From Candidatus Poseidonia sp. (GTDB lineage: Archaea; Thermoplasmatota; Poseidoniia; Poseidoniales; Poseidoniaceae): a DNA stretch of 43,102 nucleotides. Made by a program: the position numbers and the translations under genes. Below, one piece after another: positions 4,044-7,293 of the stretch. The stretch covers positions 12,540 through 55,641 of the forward strand of contig JAUREJ010000011.1 in assembly GCA_030827475.1 (NCBI GenBank). Reading direction: 5' to 3'. The notes below the pieces were generated by a model that saw nothing but the letters and a program-made list of their open reading frames with translations, was not told where the DNA came from and ran no database searches. Each line of letters opens with the position of its first letter. The first letter of the stretch is position 1.

Positions 4044-4120
4044 GGGCGATTAGGGTAGTCTGGATATCCTTCCGGCCTTCGGAGCCGGAGACGGGGGTTC
4101 GAATCCTCCATCGCCCGCCA
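4044..4120 (+). tRNA. tRNA-Arg (anticodon TCG) with encoded CCA
   Basis: A 77-base cloverleaf. The seven-base acceptor stem GGGCGAT pairs fully with ATCGCCC, followed by discriminator G and a genomically encoded CCA. The anticodon stem CCGGC pairs with GCCGG around the loop CTTCGGA, giving U33 and anticodon TCG (reads CGA and possibly other CGN codons). The T stem GGGGG/CCTCC (one G-T) holds the loop TTCGAAT. The D arm is GGGT...GG...TCC. No intron is seen. The final A of CCA is immediately followed by the stop codon of the opposite-strand gene that ends at 4121. Confidence 0.95.
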
Positions 4121-4972
4121 TCACGATGCCAACAGGGTGTACCCGCACGTTTCCATCAAAACGGTATAGATCTCGTGGTGTTCCTGGGCCAACGAATGGT
4201 CCAGAACGAAGAGGAGCTGAAAAGTAGTCTCGGTTATTTTTCGGTACTCCACGCCGCTGCCTTCTGGTGCCCACACGGCCCCCACCGGCATCATCGGGAA
4301 GTGTTCATTCCCCCATTCGATGAACGATTCATCCAGTTGCACTGTCATCGTACCCTTATGTTCTTCATGAGCTTCTTCGCAGACGAAGATGCTGGCGTTT
4401 TCTCGTGCAAACCATGGCGCGTTTTCGCTGATAATGTTCAACGCCCCCTGTTGTTCATCCCCTTCCATGGAAGCAACAGCGTACTCCATCAACTCCCTCC
4501 ACAACGGTCGAGCTTCATCCTCTCCATACCAGTAATCGGTGAGGAGAGCGAGCCGGTTCAGCGCACGGGTGTAAAAATACACTGAACGCTCCTCTCTTGA
4601 AAGATCGGCTTTGGTGGAGGCGATCAACTCAGTGAAGAGGCTGAACTTCCGGCTGAGTCCGGCCTGGTCGGAGTATCGAATGGCGAGTTCCCACATGCTT
4701 CGCTGCCAGTCGGCGTATCCCTCGTCTCCGGTTCGAGCAAGCAGGGCAACACGCGCCTCGAGGTACGAGATGACGTCAAAAGGGTTGACGACAGAGCCGC
4801 CCGGCGTGTCTTGAGCTTGCCAGAGGACCGAGTGAAGGTTGAACAGCTCCTCGCAAACATTGAGCATGTCTCCAACGCTCAGGTTTGCTTCGTCGAGGTA
4901 CGTTTCGTATTCCTCATGATGCGCGTGCCTTGAAATCAATTCCATCAATTGGTTGGTTGGCTGGTTGTTCAT
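4121..4972 (-). CDS. Hypothetical acidic protein, last gene of the tRNA-adjacent operon
   Basis: A 283-residue, strongly acidic, mostly helical protein with no motif I recognise and no membrane segment. Its start overlaps the stop of the phosphatase gene as ATGA, so translation is probably coupled. Its stop codon begins one base after the CCA of tRNA-Arg on the other strand. Being the last member of a packed operon of unfamiliar genes suggests it belongs to an acquired block. No function can be assigned. Confidence 0.75.
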   Translation of the reverse strand: MNNQPTNQLMELISRHAHHEEYETYLDEANLSVGDMLNVCEELFNLHSVLWQAQDTPGGSVVNPFDVISYLEARVALLARTGDEGYADWQRSMWELAIRYSDQAGLSRKFSLFTELIASTKADLSREERSVYFYTRALNRLALLTDYWYGEDEARPLWRELMEYAVASMEGDEQQGALNIISENAPWFARENASIFVCEEAHEEHKGTMTVQLDESFIEWGNEHFPMMPVGAVWAPEGSGVEYRKITETTFQLLFVLDHSLAQEHHEIYTVLMETCGYTLLAS

Positions 4973-5611
4973 TGGTCTCCCCTCCTTTTCCCCTTGGTTG
5001 GTTTAAATCGGATTGGAGGGTCGTTTTCGTTTCCAATCGCTTCTTCTTGGTCGCCATCGGAGGCAACTTGACCGCTGGCCAGGTCCATCAAGAAGGCGAC
5101 TTGACGCGGGTTCATGCAGTGAGGACTGCGGATTTCACGAACCGCATGGATGGCCTCGCGCATGTTCATGCCCCGTAACCAAAGGTACAACGAGGCAAAG
5201 GTCCCCGCACGGCTCAAGCCCCCCATGCAGTGCACCACCACCTTTGCGCCTTCTGGAACGGTGGTCAAGATCTTCTGCAAGACGGGGCTTGCCATGTCCA
5301 TCCACGCATCCGTGGGTGAGGTGGTGTAGGCAAAGGGAAGGTGGTAACATGATAAAACCGTTGTTTTGCAACTGCTGAGGGAGGTCTTCAACGCGAAGGA
5401 CACGCATGTCGTCGTCGGTGATCAGGCTGATGACGTGGGAGACGCCCATGTCAACGAGCGCTTGGACGTCCACATCGAGTTGGCGGTCCCAACTGCCCGT
5501 GGAAGCAACGGGTTGGTACTTTCCCGGACACAACGTAAGGCCCAAGGCACCCTCGTCGCCTTCGAGTTCAATCCACGACACGTAGAGAGGATGGGTGGTG
5601 CTGTTGCGCAT
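4969..5611 (-). pseudogene. Dual-specificity (CDKN3/KAP-like) protein phosphatase, interrupted by a one-base frameshift
   Basis: Two overlapping frames make one phosphatase. The N-terminal part, from ATG at 5611 to about 5348, starts MRNSTTHPLYV and contains GLTLCPGKYQ, SWDRQLDVDV and VSHVISLITDDD. The C-terminal part, below about 5346, contains YHLPFAYTTSP and the cysteine-phosphatase signature HCMGGLSRAGT (HCxxGxxRxGT). The minus-strand sequence at the junction reads ATG-T-TAC-CAC; removing one T (5346 or 5347) joins both parts into 213 residues in the order expected for KAP-like phosphatases. As written, the first frame runs on to a stop at 5135 and lacks the catalytic cysteine. It could be a true mutation, a sequencing or assembly error, or recoding. 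Neighbours on both sides are joined without gaps (TGA-ATG upstream, ATGA downstream). Confidence 0.85.
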
Positions 5612-5938
5612 TCAAACACCCCCTCGACGGTTGCGGTTGCCATACGCCCACATCGTTCGCCAAATATCGAGGCACACGTCGTGATATTCGTCGTCTGGAA
5701 TGCTGTTTTTGAAATTGTCATACGCCATCGACGATAGGTACGCAGAAATCGCTTCTTGAACCACCTCGCGAGGCAAAACGGTCCGGTAGGGGTAGTCGGC
5801 CGCAGCGAGATGAGTAACTTGCGCTTCGGGGAAGACGGCGTTGATGTGGTCGGAATGACGAGCGCGCACGAGGAGGTCGTCGGGCTGGTGACGGTGAGCG
5901 ACGATGGACAGATAGCCGCCGGAAACGAAGAGCCACAT
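5612..5938 (-). CDS. Conserved protein of unknown function (MWLF...DYPYR family)
   Basis: A 108-residue soluble protein. It resembles an uncharacterised family, seen mainly in bacteria, with the pattern MWLF-x-GGYLSIV near the start, LLVRARH in the middle, then ADYPYR, YDNFK and a closing W-R-x-MW. I know no function for the family; the recall is from memory of its conserved residues. The start codon at 5938 directly follows the TGA of the small zinc-ribbon gene, and its own TGA is directly followed by the ATG of the phosphatase gene, so it is co-translated in the island operon. Confidence 0.8.
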   Translation of the reverse strand: MWLFVSGGYLSIVAHRHQPDDLLVRARHSDHINAVFPEAQVTHLAAADYPYRTVLPREVVQEAISAYLSSMAYDNFKNSIPDDEYHDVCLDIWRTMWAYGNRNRRGGV

Positions 5939-6088
5939 TCAACAACTCCCTCCTTTGTTGTGATGCTCCCAATCTCCCGAAGAGGTGTCATTTGGATAAT
6001 CAAAGGCTCGCCATCTCCCATCGTTGCATTTGACCATGTGGATGGTTTGGCCACAAGTCCTGCACAAACGCCGATAATGCTCTGTCAA
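5939..6088 (-). CDS. Very small zinc-ribbon-like protein with TTG start
   Basis: A 49-residue protein. It carries CRTCG at 9-13, Cys21 in VKCNDGRWRAFDYP, and a late His-His pair (42-43) and Cys49, a layout that could coordinate zinc. No ATG or GTG is well placed. TTG at 6088 overlaps the stop of the upstream gene as TTGA, which matches the tight spacing in the rest of this operon, and the protein sequence before it looks random. Its TGA is directly followed by the next ATG. Function unknown. Confidence 0.6.
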   Translation of the reverse strand: MTEHYRRLCRTCGQTIHMVKCNDGRWRAFDYPNDTSSGDWEHHNKGGSC

Positions 6089-6471
6089 GCCACCACCTCT
6101 TCTGACATCACCTGCGGCGGGTGAAATTCTTCGTTGAATTGAGCAGCCGTTAGAAGAATTGTGTGAGCGCCAATTTGCATGCGGCATCCCAAAGAATGAA
6201 GTGTTTCCGCAACCATGGCCAAGAGCGCCAATTCCCGAGGCCTGCAAACGGCGACGATGCAGCGAACGGTACGGCGGTCCAGAACCTGCACGATGAAGCC
6301 GTAATCCCGTTCGAAAACAATTTTCCCTGATGGGTGCGATAAATACCGCTTCTTGACGTAGGTTTTGTTGCGATTGGAGTGCGCCCTTGCGATTTCTCTG
6401 CTGGTCAGCGCAGGAAGGAGGGAGAGATCGAAACTTGAAACGAATTGGTTTCGACTGGAAGGCGTTGGCAA
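6085..6471 (-). CDS. Hypothetical protein, paralogue of the adjacent upstream gene
   Basis: A 128-residue soluble alpha/beta protein with no recognised domain. From about residue 52 on it can be aligned with the neighbouring 6472-6903 product: both share a YGF/MGF-(I/V) step, a V/L-RCI strand, a region rich in EL or IEL hydrophobics, HSLG/HVGA before a strand, and an acidic end (NEEF/DEDY). The best start is TTG at 6471, which directly follows the upstream TGA; a downstream start cannot be excluded. Its stop overlaps the TTG of the zinc-ribbon gene. Confidence 0.7.
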   Translation of the reverse strand: MPTPSSRNQFVSSFDLSLLPALTSREIARAHSNRNKTYVKKRYLSHPSGKIVFERDYGFIVQVLDRRTVRCIVAVCRPRELALLAMVAETLHSLGCRMQIGAHTILLTAAQFNEEFHPPQVMSEEVVA

Positions 6472-6903
6472 TCAGGCCACCTCCATGCCAAGAGGAGCGG
6501 GTTCGGAGAGTGGTTTCGAATTCTCCTTCGTGCTCATGCTGTTTGCGTAATCCTCATCGAAGGGAACAACCACCGTATAAGGTGCAAACACAAGTTTGGC
6601 CCCCACGTGTTTTATCGTCGCGTGAACGAAAGCAAGGTCCAGTTCAATATGAGGGTGGTCGACGAGGTAAATGCAACGAAGCTCCCCGTTCCCTCCGTTC
6701 TGAAGGACGAACCCCATGGACTCAAACCAATGGAAGCGCCCAACGGTCCGGTCGCTGCACAAATCACGTATGAATTGGACATTCTTCGGTTGAACAGCCG
6801 CAGCAAATTCTTCGTCATTGATGGATGGCAGCCCTTCTGCTGAAAATTCCCGAAGGGTCGTTTCTTCGACTTGCCGGTTGGTATCCCCTTGATTCGTGTT
6901 CAT
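6472..6903 (-). CDS. Hypothetical protein, first gene of the island operon
   Basis: A 143-residue acidic protein, unrecognised, with an N-terminal polar tail (about 1-30) and a central alpha/beta core around FESMGFVLQN, ELRCIYLVDH and HVGAKLVFAP. The core is similar in order and length to the next gene downstream, suggesting a duplication. It heads a minus-strand run of six genes with zero-length or overlapping junctions. The 138-base upstream region holds two GGATTCAAA repeats spaced 21 bases apart. Function unknown. Confidence 0.72.
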   Translation of the reverse strand: MNTNQGDTNRQVEETTLREFSAEGLPSINDEEFAAAVQPKNVQFIRDLCSDRTVGRFHWFESMGFVLQNGGNGELRCIYLVDHPHIELDLAFVHATIKHVGAKLVFAPYTVVVPFDEDYANSMSTKENSKPLSEPAPLGMEVA

Positions 6904-6929
6904 CTTTAGTGGGGAATCTCTTTTGTTTT

Positions 6930-6965
6930 GGATTCAAATCGGCAACATCCGGATTCAAAATTCAA
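6930..6965. promoter_or_regulatory. Direct repeats GGATTCAAA, 21 bases apart: candidate operator
   Basis: GGATTCAAA occurs at 6930-6938 and 6951-6959, with a partial third copy (AATTCAA) at 6959-6965. The centre spacing of 21 bases is two turns of the helix, and the block lies 27-62 bases upstream of the first gene of the island operon, where a promoter would be. A regulator binding one face of the DNA is a reasonable inference; nothing in the sequence proves it. Confidence 0.35.
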
Positions 6966-7002
6966 CCGGTTACGACGGGACCCCACGGACATCCCGACCG
7001 AC

Positions 7003-7010
7003 CTTTATGG
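7003..7010 (+). promoter_or_regulatory. Possible weak TATA box for the small winged-helix gene
   Basis: The sequence CTTTATGG lies about 32-39 bases before the ATG at 7042. That would place transcription start roughly 10 bases before the start codon, in the usual archaeal arrangement. The match to a TATA box is weak. Confidence 0.3.
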
Positions 7011-7041
7011 CCGATGTTCACCTATGGATACATGAGAAATC

Positions 7042-7293
7042 ATGAGAGGCAAAGGCTCCCAGAAGAAGGCTCGCTTGGAACGCTTGAAAAACGAAATCGT
7101 CGATTACGTCACGAACACCCCCGGCGTCTCCGCAGCGGACATCGTCGCCTTTCTTTCCAACGAACGAAAGATGCGAAACCACGGATTGACCACACGAAAA
7201 GTTGGTTTGTTCATCCCCCTGCACCTGGCCGACATGATCAATTTCCGTTTGGACGCTTCAACCGGCAAGCGAATCTACCACGCAGCCGCCTGA
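7042..7293 (+). CDS. Small winged-helix-like protein
   Basis: An 83-residue basic protein. After a Lys/Arg-rich start, residues 17-50 (EIVDYVTNTPG, SAADIVAFLSNERK) read like the first two helices of a winged helix-turn-helix domain, and the C-terminal part contains a short beta-wing-like end (GKRIYHAA). It may bind nucleic acid. ATG at 7042 is used; the two upstream ATGs are out of frame. It lies between the island operon (divergent) and the amino-sugar genes downstream on the same strand. It could regulate either neighbour, but that is conjecture. Confidence 0.65.
   Translation: MRGKGSQKKARLERLKNEIVDYVTNTPGVSAADIVAFLSNERKMRNHGLTTRKVGLFIPLHLADMINFRLDASTGKRIYHAAA

What the first reader, a model, noticed from the sequence alone, without database searches (positions are those of the whole stretch)
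4121..6903. Six-gene packed operon abutting the 3' end of tRNA-Arg: likely acquired island
Seen: six minus-strand genes have zero or negative spacing (TGA-ATG or TGA-TTG abutments, and TTGA or ATGA overlaps). The last stop codon begins one base after the tRNA CCA. Nearly all products are unfamiliar, in contrast to the housekeeping genes around, and stretches look less GC-rich. Known: tRNA 3' ends are common integration points for mobile elements. Inference: a horizontally acquired functional module combining a phosphatase, a zinc ribbon and paralogous unknowns. No integrase is present, so any mobility has been lost or acts in trans.
Basis: partly seen in the sequence, partly recalled or inferred. 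Interest (0 to 1): 0.6.

Follow-up and report, generated by a model that had tools for sequence, protein, structure and literature searches.

The report
Swappable gene cassette beside archaeal tRNA
In uncultured ocean archaea (Poseidonia), the spot just behind one arginine-tRNA gene is either empty or holds a small block of unfamiliar genes, including a phosphatase gene that is damaged here, and closely related genomes have swapped different versions of this block even though it carries no known mobility gene.

Summary
Behind tRNA-Arg(TCG) (4044-4120, +) lie six tightly packed minus-strand genes (4121-6903). The fifth, a dual-specificity phosphatase, is frameshifted here and has lost an invariant aspartate; it is intact in relatives. 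The sixth fuses two genes that are separate elsewhere.

The acquired-island reading is supported. In congeners the tRNA-to-next-gene interval is 93-197 bp in ten genomes, holds versions of this module in nine (plus three split assemblies), and an unrelated gene in one. Module similarity does not follow the core genes, and synonymous divergence from the nearest relative drops inside the island. GC is the lowest in the window. There is no integrase and no tRNA-end duplication, so exchange by homologous recombination at the flanks is the best-supported present route.

The conserved core is not the six genes but the pair g1-g4, adjacent in 38 of 39 testable loci across the order, with a swappable divergent gene and phosphatases, and in other Poseidoniales islands a ubiquitin-like/E1/JAB set and a T7-type RNA polymerase. 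Function is inferred: a conflict-type system. The kind of locus (integrase-less flexible island) is known; the gene system appears undescribed in the libraries searched.

The parts
4044..4120 (+). tRNA-Arg(TCG) with encoded CCA; left border of the hotspot
   Evidence: ARAGORN; same tRNA at the border in over 20 congeners
4121..4972 (-). g6, 283 aa; fusion of two families (N part residues 1-196, C part about 208-283) that are separate neighbouring genes in relatives; stop abuts the tRNA
   Evidence: dN/dS 0.16 (N) and 0.31 (C) against G027
4969..5611 (-). g5, dual-specificity (CDKN3/PTP-SAK-like) phosphatase gene, disrupted by a one-base shift near 5354-5357; the P-loop HCMGGLSRAG lies in the shifted half; invariant Asp95 replaced by Tyr
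   Evidence: in frame in the relatives examined
5612..5938 (-). g4, 108 aa; conserved core gene of the module; family also in tailed phages and plasmids; no Pfam family at E<=1
   Evidence: dN/dS 0.11
5939..6088 (-). g3, 49-aa zinc-ribbon-like protein (TTG start); relatives lie between g1 and g4 in G021, G158, G147, and next to g1 in G172
6085..6471 (-). g2, 128 aa, paralogue of g1 (TTG start)
6472..6903 (-). g1, 143 aa; conserved core gene, predicted alpha-alpha-beta-beta-beta-alpha-beta fold; 42% identical to the allele in the nearest relative although neighbours are about 90%
6904..6976 (.). upstream region of g1; in relatives the divergent gene x (184-194 aa) occupies this side; absent here
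6977..7041 (+). conserved block GGGACCCCACGGACATCCC plus A+T-rich TATA-like element upstream of the next gene; right border, present in empty and filled sites
7042..7293 (+). 'sm', conserved 83-aa gene (73-97% identity in congeners), right flank of the hotspot

Best explanation
The interval between the 3' end of tRNA-Arg(TCG) and the conserved 83-aa gene is a variable slot in Poseidonia chromosomes. In this genome it holds one allele of a horizontally exchanged cassette. Shown: empty, filled and differently filled sites; module genealogy that disagrees with the core genes; a mosaic within the module (g1 side replaced, g6 side recently shared with G027). Inferred: present exchange runs by homologous recombination in the conserved flanks (tRNA and upstream genes on one side; the 83-aa gene, acyltransferase-like gene and phosphoglucomutase on the other), without an integrase of its own. 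The cassette is a reduced form of a modular system whose core is the gene pair g1-g4. Around that core other parts are swapped: a divergent partner (x, or a single-subunit RNA polymerase), a zinc ribbon, one or two phosphatases, and in some islands a ubiquitin-like protein with its E1 and JAB peptidase. Inferred function: a conflict (defence or element-maintenance) system in which phosphatases remove phosphate from a nucleotide-derived or protein target that g1-g4 recognise; a link to ADP-ribose chemistry is suggested by bacterial and phage relatives. In this window the phosphatase is probably dead, while g4 and g6 are under purifying selection, so the copy is partly decayed.
For: Empty sites in 10 congeners, filled in 9 contiguous loci, other cargo in 1. 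Incongruence: G021-G023 share 60% in the tRNA methylase but 88/89/86% in g4/g1/x; G021-G011 87% against 64% in g4; G020-G008 85% against 65% in g4; window-G027 90% against 42% in g1. dS window-G027: 0.34-0.53 in flanking genes, 0.08-0.14 in g6 and the 3' half of g5; identity rises to 96-98.5% at 4501-5300 and collapses after about 5900. Five contigs in relatives end within about 5 nt of this tRNA's 3' end, as expected of population variation there. Core pair adjacent in 38 of 39 testable loci; g4 in 40 of 244 genomes, 13 of 22 genera. Same module at tRNA-Arg(TCT) and near tRNA-Gln(CTG) and tRNA-Ala(TGC) elsewhere. No integrase. Wider system. ADP-ribose link: closest plasmid relatives of g5 are fused or adjacent to ADP-ribosylglycohydrolase; g4 relatives sit beside NUDIX and ADP-ribosyltransferase genes in phages and are fused to NUDIX on a plasmid.
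Against: No direct recombination test on flanking genes with population data was possible, and nearly all genomes are fragmented metagenome assemblies. Neither g1 nor g4 has a fold match that would indicate function. No ADP-ribosylglycohydrolase lies in the g4-carrying genomes (2 of 244 have one, neither carrying g4). PADLOC has no significant match. The module is near tRNA genes at several sites, which argues for tRNA-directed insertion at some stage.
Confidence: 0.66

Rival explanations
1. tRNA-directed integrative element (tycheposon-, satellite- or hitcher-like) inserted by a tyrosine recombinase supplied in trans; its own integrase and the displaced tRNA end have been lost.
For: The module lies at or near several different tRNA genes in different genera. 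In G023 the 16.6-kb version contains an internal 3' fragment of tRNA-Arg(TCT) with its downstream flank and an 11-bp copy of the tRNA-Arg(TCG) terminus (ATCGCCCGCCA) near the far border.
Against: No integrase in any island examined; a single tyrosine recombinase in the window genome, on another contig. No tRNA-end repeat in the window or in the other filled loci apart from G023 (best match at shuffle level). Recent exchange does not need it.
Confidence: 0.27
2. A stable, vertically inherited core operon that was lost repeatedly.
For: g4, g6 and the N part of g5 are under purifying selection.
Against: Identity patterns contradict vertical descent; GC outlier; 40 of 244 genomes; different cargo at the same site.
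Confidence: 0.03
3. A decayed provirus or Charybdis-type element of Poseidoniales.
For: Charybdis elements integrate next to tRNA genes in Poseidonia and have two opposed gene clusters (PMC12324425); g4 has tailed-phage relatives.
Against: Integrated Charybdis elements carry an integrase and the Gp3 hallmark; none of the six products was recognised as such, and scans of IMG/VR with g5, x and g6 found no relative. The scans need short peptide patterns, so distant relatives could be missed.
Confidence: 0.04

Closest known systems
[quoted passage not shown] 2017, PMC5635113)
   Same: Fixed slot between conserved genes, rapid turnover, empty sites, no mobility gene, mosaic alleles
   Different: Described in bacteria; here an uncultured marine archaeon with one recurrent module of unknown genes
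Flexible genomic islands / tycheposons in marine bacteria (PMC10872708; Hackl et al. 2023)
   Same: tRNA gene marks one border, conserved gene marks the other, variable cargo
   Different: Tycheposons carry a tyrosine recombinase; none here, and the cassette is only about 3 kb
ADP-ribosylglycohydrolase-centred anti-ADP-ribosylation systems (Iyer et al. 2022, PMC9503650)
   Same: CDKN3-like phosphatase of the same family; interchangeable phosphatases; variable accessory genes; g4 relatives near NUDIX and ADP-ribosyltransferase genes
   Different: The defining glycohydrolase is absent; the core is the g1-g4 pair, not named in the section read
Charybdis elements of Poseidoniales (PMC12324425)
   Same: Same hosts, tRNA-adjacent integration, two opposed gene clusters
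   Different: No Gp3 hallmark recognised, no integrase, no IMG/VR matches for g5, x and g6
PRTRC / prokaryotic ubiquitin-like-E1-JAB cassettes (PMC1779556; TIGR03736)
   Same: In related islands (not in the window) ThiF, a JAB-like peptidase and a small protein with terminal GG are linked to g1-g4
   Different: ThiF scores below the PRTRC cut-off; no other PRTRC model matched; a single-subunit RNA polymerase is present

Membership tests
tRNA-integrated genomic island (integrase type) | Sits at the 3' end of a tRNA gene with empty sites in relatives | tested here: met
tRNA-integrated genomic island (integrase type) | Displaced tRNA 3' fragment at the far end (direct repeat) | tested here: not met
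   best match at shuffle level in the window; 11-bp candidate only in G023
tRNA-integrated genomic island (integrase type) | Site-specific recombinase in the island | tested here: not met
   no such gene among island ORFs; only tyrosine-recombinase match in the genome is on contig C11
Integrase-less hotspot with homologous exchange | Variable content between conserved flanking genes | tested here: met
Integrase-less hotspot with homologous exchange | Recombination signal at the locus | tested here: met
   incongruent identities, dS drop and identity steps
Integrase-less hotspot with homologous exchange | Excess recombination in flanking core genes compared with other core genes | not tested
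   needs population genomes
Tycheposon | Tyrosine recombinase at the tRNA border | tested here: not met
ARG-centred anti-ADP-ribosylation system | ADP-ribosylglycohydrolase gene | tested here: not met
   PF03747 in 2 of 244 order genomes (G025, G114), neither among the g4 carriers; none in the window genome
ARG-centred anti-ADP-ribosylation system | Rhodanese/DSP-superfamily phosphatase | tested here: met
   g5 relatives in plasmids are fused or adjacent to ARG
Dual-specificity phosphatase (g5) | HCxxGxxR P-loop | tested here: met
   HCMGGLSRAG, Pfam DSPc/PTP-SAK
Dual-specificity phosphatase (g5) | Uninterrupted frame and the Asp invariant among the six relatives aligned (presumed general acid) | tested here: not met
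   shift near 5354-5357 and Asp to Tyr in the window; both intact in relatives
Charybdis element | Gp3 double Greek-key protein | tested here: inconclusive
   no product of that kind recognised; Gp3 model not available; no IMG/VR hits with g5, x and g6

The most novel reading that the evidence does not exclude
g1-g4 is the core of an undescribed modular conflict or element-control system of Poseidoniales, exchanged as small allelic cassettes in Poseidonia. Fuller forms elsewhere combine it with a divergent T7/mitochondrial-type single-subunit RNA polymerase (or x), a zinc ribbon, one or two phosphatases and a ubiquitin-like/E1/JAB pathway.
Probability: 0.4. Interest if true: 0.78.

Novelty: new variant of a known kind. 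Interest (0 to 1): 0.5.

Why it matters
It gives a clear case, with empty, filled and mosaic alleles, of gene-cassette replacement in one of the most abundant groups of marine archaea, which has no cultured member. It also points to a recurring uncharacterised gene pair (g1-g4) that ties together phosphatases, a ubiquitin-like pathway and a phage-type RNA polymerase in archaeal chromosomal islands, and so gives specific genes to test for defence or element control.

Tried and rejected
Pfam, PHROGs, PADLOC and NCBIfam scans of g1, g2, g4, g6 and x: no significant match; low-scoring rows (e.g. Csx21, O-antigen acetylase for g4) treated as chance. AlphaFold2 models of g1 (pLDDT 78) and g4 (88): no PDB match above Z 3.8 and 4.7; the many RNA polymerase subunit L/Rpb11 rows for g4 are within the range of common arrangements and not used. 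BFVD only recovered g4's own phage relatives. Direct repeat of the tRNA 3' end at the right border: not found in the window. Some orphan tRNA 3' ends in other loci (L167, L169) turned out to be intron-containing tRNA-Trp and tRNA-Tyr genes. Near-identity of G018:C81 and G048:C67 to G039 (98-99%) was at first read as recent transfer between genera, but whole short contigs match, so misbinning is likelier and it is not used as evidence. A codon-usage gene caller was trained but discriminated poorly and was dropped. Membership in the ARG-centred system was rejected because the glycohydrolase is absent.

Full report
What is there. The window is from a Poseidonia (Marine Group II archaea) assembly: the nearest named record is a Poseidonia MAG 95% identical in g6. 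Behind tRNA-Arg(TCG) at 4044-4120 are six minus-strand genes with zero or four-base overlaps, ending on the tRNA. The interval to the next conserved gene (83 aa, 'sm', 7042) is 2921 bp. Only the phosphatase has a recognisable family. g1 and g2 are paralogues. The island is the lowest-GC stretch of its length in the window (0.542 against 0.586, z -2.9).

Two of the six genes are not what they seem. The phosphatase g5 is interrupted: one extra base in a T run near 5354-5357 moves the catalytic half, with its HCMGGLSRAG loop, out of frame. The relatives examined are in frame. The window copy has also changed an Asp that is invariant in the six relatives aligned (FADTTAP to FAYTTSP). Two lesions argue for real decay and not only an assembly error. 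The sixth gene joins two families that are separate neighbouring genes in G007 and G023.

Empty and filled sites. In congeneric genomes the same tRNA is followed after 93-197 bp by the same 83-aa gene in G004, G005, G009, G010, G013, G014, G015, G019, G022 and G026. It is followed by versions of the module in the window, G027, G020, G021, G017, G011, G007, G001 and G023 (2.1 to 16.6 kb), by an unrelated gene in G024, and by module parts on split contigs in G008, G029 and G002. The boundaries are the tRNA end and a conserved block GGGRCCCCACGGACATCCC upstream of the 83-aa gene. Contigs in five genomes stop within about 5 nt of the tRNA end, which is what a population-variable junction would do to an assembler (inference).

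Horizontal exchange. Pairwise protein identities show module alleles moving independently of the host. G023 is 60% identical to G021 and to G029 in the tRNA methylase but 84-89% in g4, g1 and x; G021-G011 and G020-G008 are 84-88% in the tRNA methylase and phosphoglucomutase but only 64-65% in g4. Between the window and G027 the flanking genes differ at dS 0.34-0.53, g4 at 0.27, but g6 and the 3' part of g5 at 0.08-0.14. Nucleotide identity is 96-98.5% at 4501-5300 and collapses beyond about 5900, where g1 is only 42% identical. So at least two exchange events shaped this copy.

Mechanism. No integrase is encoded in the islands; the genome has one tyrosine-recombinase match on another contig. 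The tRNA 3' end is not repeated at the far border. Homologous recombination through the conserved flanks is therefore the most economical route, as documented for bacterial hotspots without mobile-element genes (PMC5635113) and suggested for proteorhodopsin replacement in Poseidoniales (PMC6461757). How the module first entered is open. Its presence at tRNA-Arg(TCT) and near tRNA-Gln and tRNA-Ala in other genera, and the tRNA fragments in the compound G023 island, keep a tRNA-targeting ancestor possible.

What the module is. A profile of g4 finds it in 40 of 244 genomes of the order, 13 of 22 genera. Wherever enough sequence is assembled, g1 is its neighbour (38 of 39 loci). Around this pair the parts vary: x or a divergent RNA polymerase, a zinc ribbon between g1 and g4, the DSP phosphatase, a calcineurin-type phosphatase, a 114-aa protein, and in G158, G232, G239, G244 and G245 a ThiF-type E1, a JAB-like peptidase with invariant HTHP..S..D motif, and a small protein ending in or carrying PGLxGG. 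The RNA polymerase is of the T7/mitochondrial type (PF00940 1.1e-50; motifs A, B and C visible against a mitochondrial RNA polymerase). It occurs in 13 order genomes as a long divergent form, 8 of which carry g4 (one-sided Fisher p about 2e-4), in five of them on the same contig. This is the part that departs most from what is known.

Function (inferred). g5's best plasmid relatives are fused or adjacent to ADP-ribosylglycohydrolases. g4's phage relatives lie beside NUDIX and ADP-ribosyltransferase genes, and a plasmid relative is fused to NUDIX near an ADP-ribosylglycohydrolase. Iyer et al. (PMC9503650) describe glycohydrolase-centred systems with interchangeable phosphatases. The Poseidoniales module lacks the glycohydrolase and is not a member, but may act on related chemistry. 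The arrangement (variable accessory parts, replacement of equivalent enzymes, mosaic alleles at a hotspot) is typical of conflict systems. No activity has been shown for any of these proteins, and the window copy probably lacks phosphatase activity.

Verdict. The locus type is known; the particular gene system is not described in any library searched here. Interest is moderate for the window itself and higher for the wider g1-g4 system.

Noticed in passing
L158:1-11568 (G245:C6), L198 (G244:C12), L200 (G158:C20), L202 (G232:C28), L161 (G147:C59): Archaeal chromosomal islands where g1-g4 is linked to a 1.3-1.4-kaa single-subunit (T7/mitochondrial-type) RNA polymerase and, in all but L161, a ThiF E1, a JAB-like peptidase and a small protein with a GG end.
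   Followed up: partly
L024 and L224 (G023:C13:55293-72195): A 16.6-kb compound version of the same island holding an internal 3' fragment of tRNA-Arg(TCT) with its flank (the intact gene is on G023:C9) and an 11-bp tRNA-Arg terminus ATCGCCCGCCA near the far border; carries SPFH-like, vWA-like and TPR-like ORFs by eye.
   Followed up: partly
L031:8046-8154 and L033:4242-4452: Inverted copies of the 3' end of tRNA-Gln(CTG) lie just downstream of the tRNA beside the module in G057 and G062 (two copies about 100 bp apart in G062).
   Followed up: no
window 6977-6995: Block GGGACCCCACGGACATCCC upstream of the 83-aa gene is conserved in empty and filled sites; possible regulator site.
   Followed up: no
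L170, L171, L174, L175, L176, L189, L190, L191: g4 belongs to a family found in diverse tailed phages, often near NUDIX/ADP-ribosyltransferase genes and terminase or portal genes, with no Pfam family.
   Followed up: partly
L028 (G018:C81) and L029 (G048:C67): Short contigs 98-99% identical to the single-contig genome G039 of another genus; probably misbinned.
   Followed up: no
L026:4300-7730 and L074:2870-3877: Other cargo in the same slot: a roughly 1.1-kaa ORF with a signal-like N terminus in G020 and an unrelated 335-aa ORF in G024.
   Followed up: no
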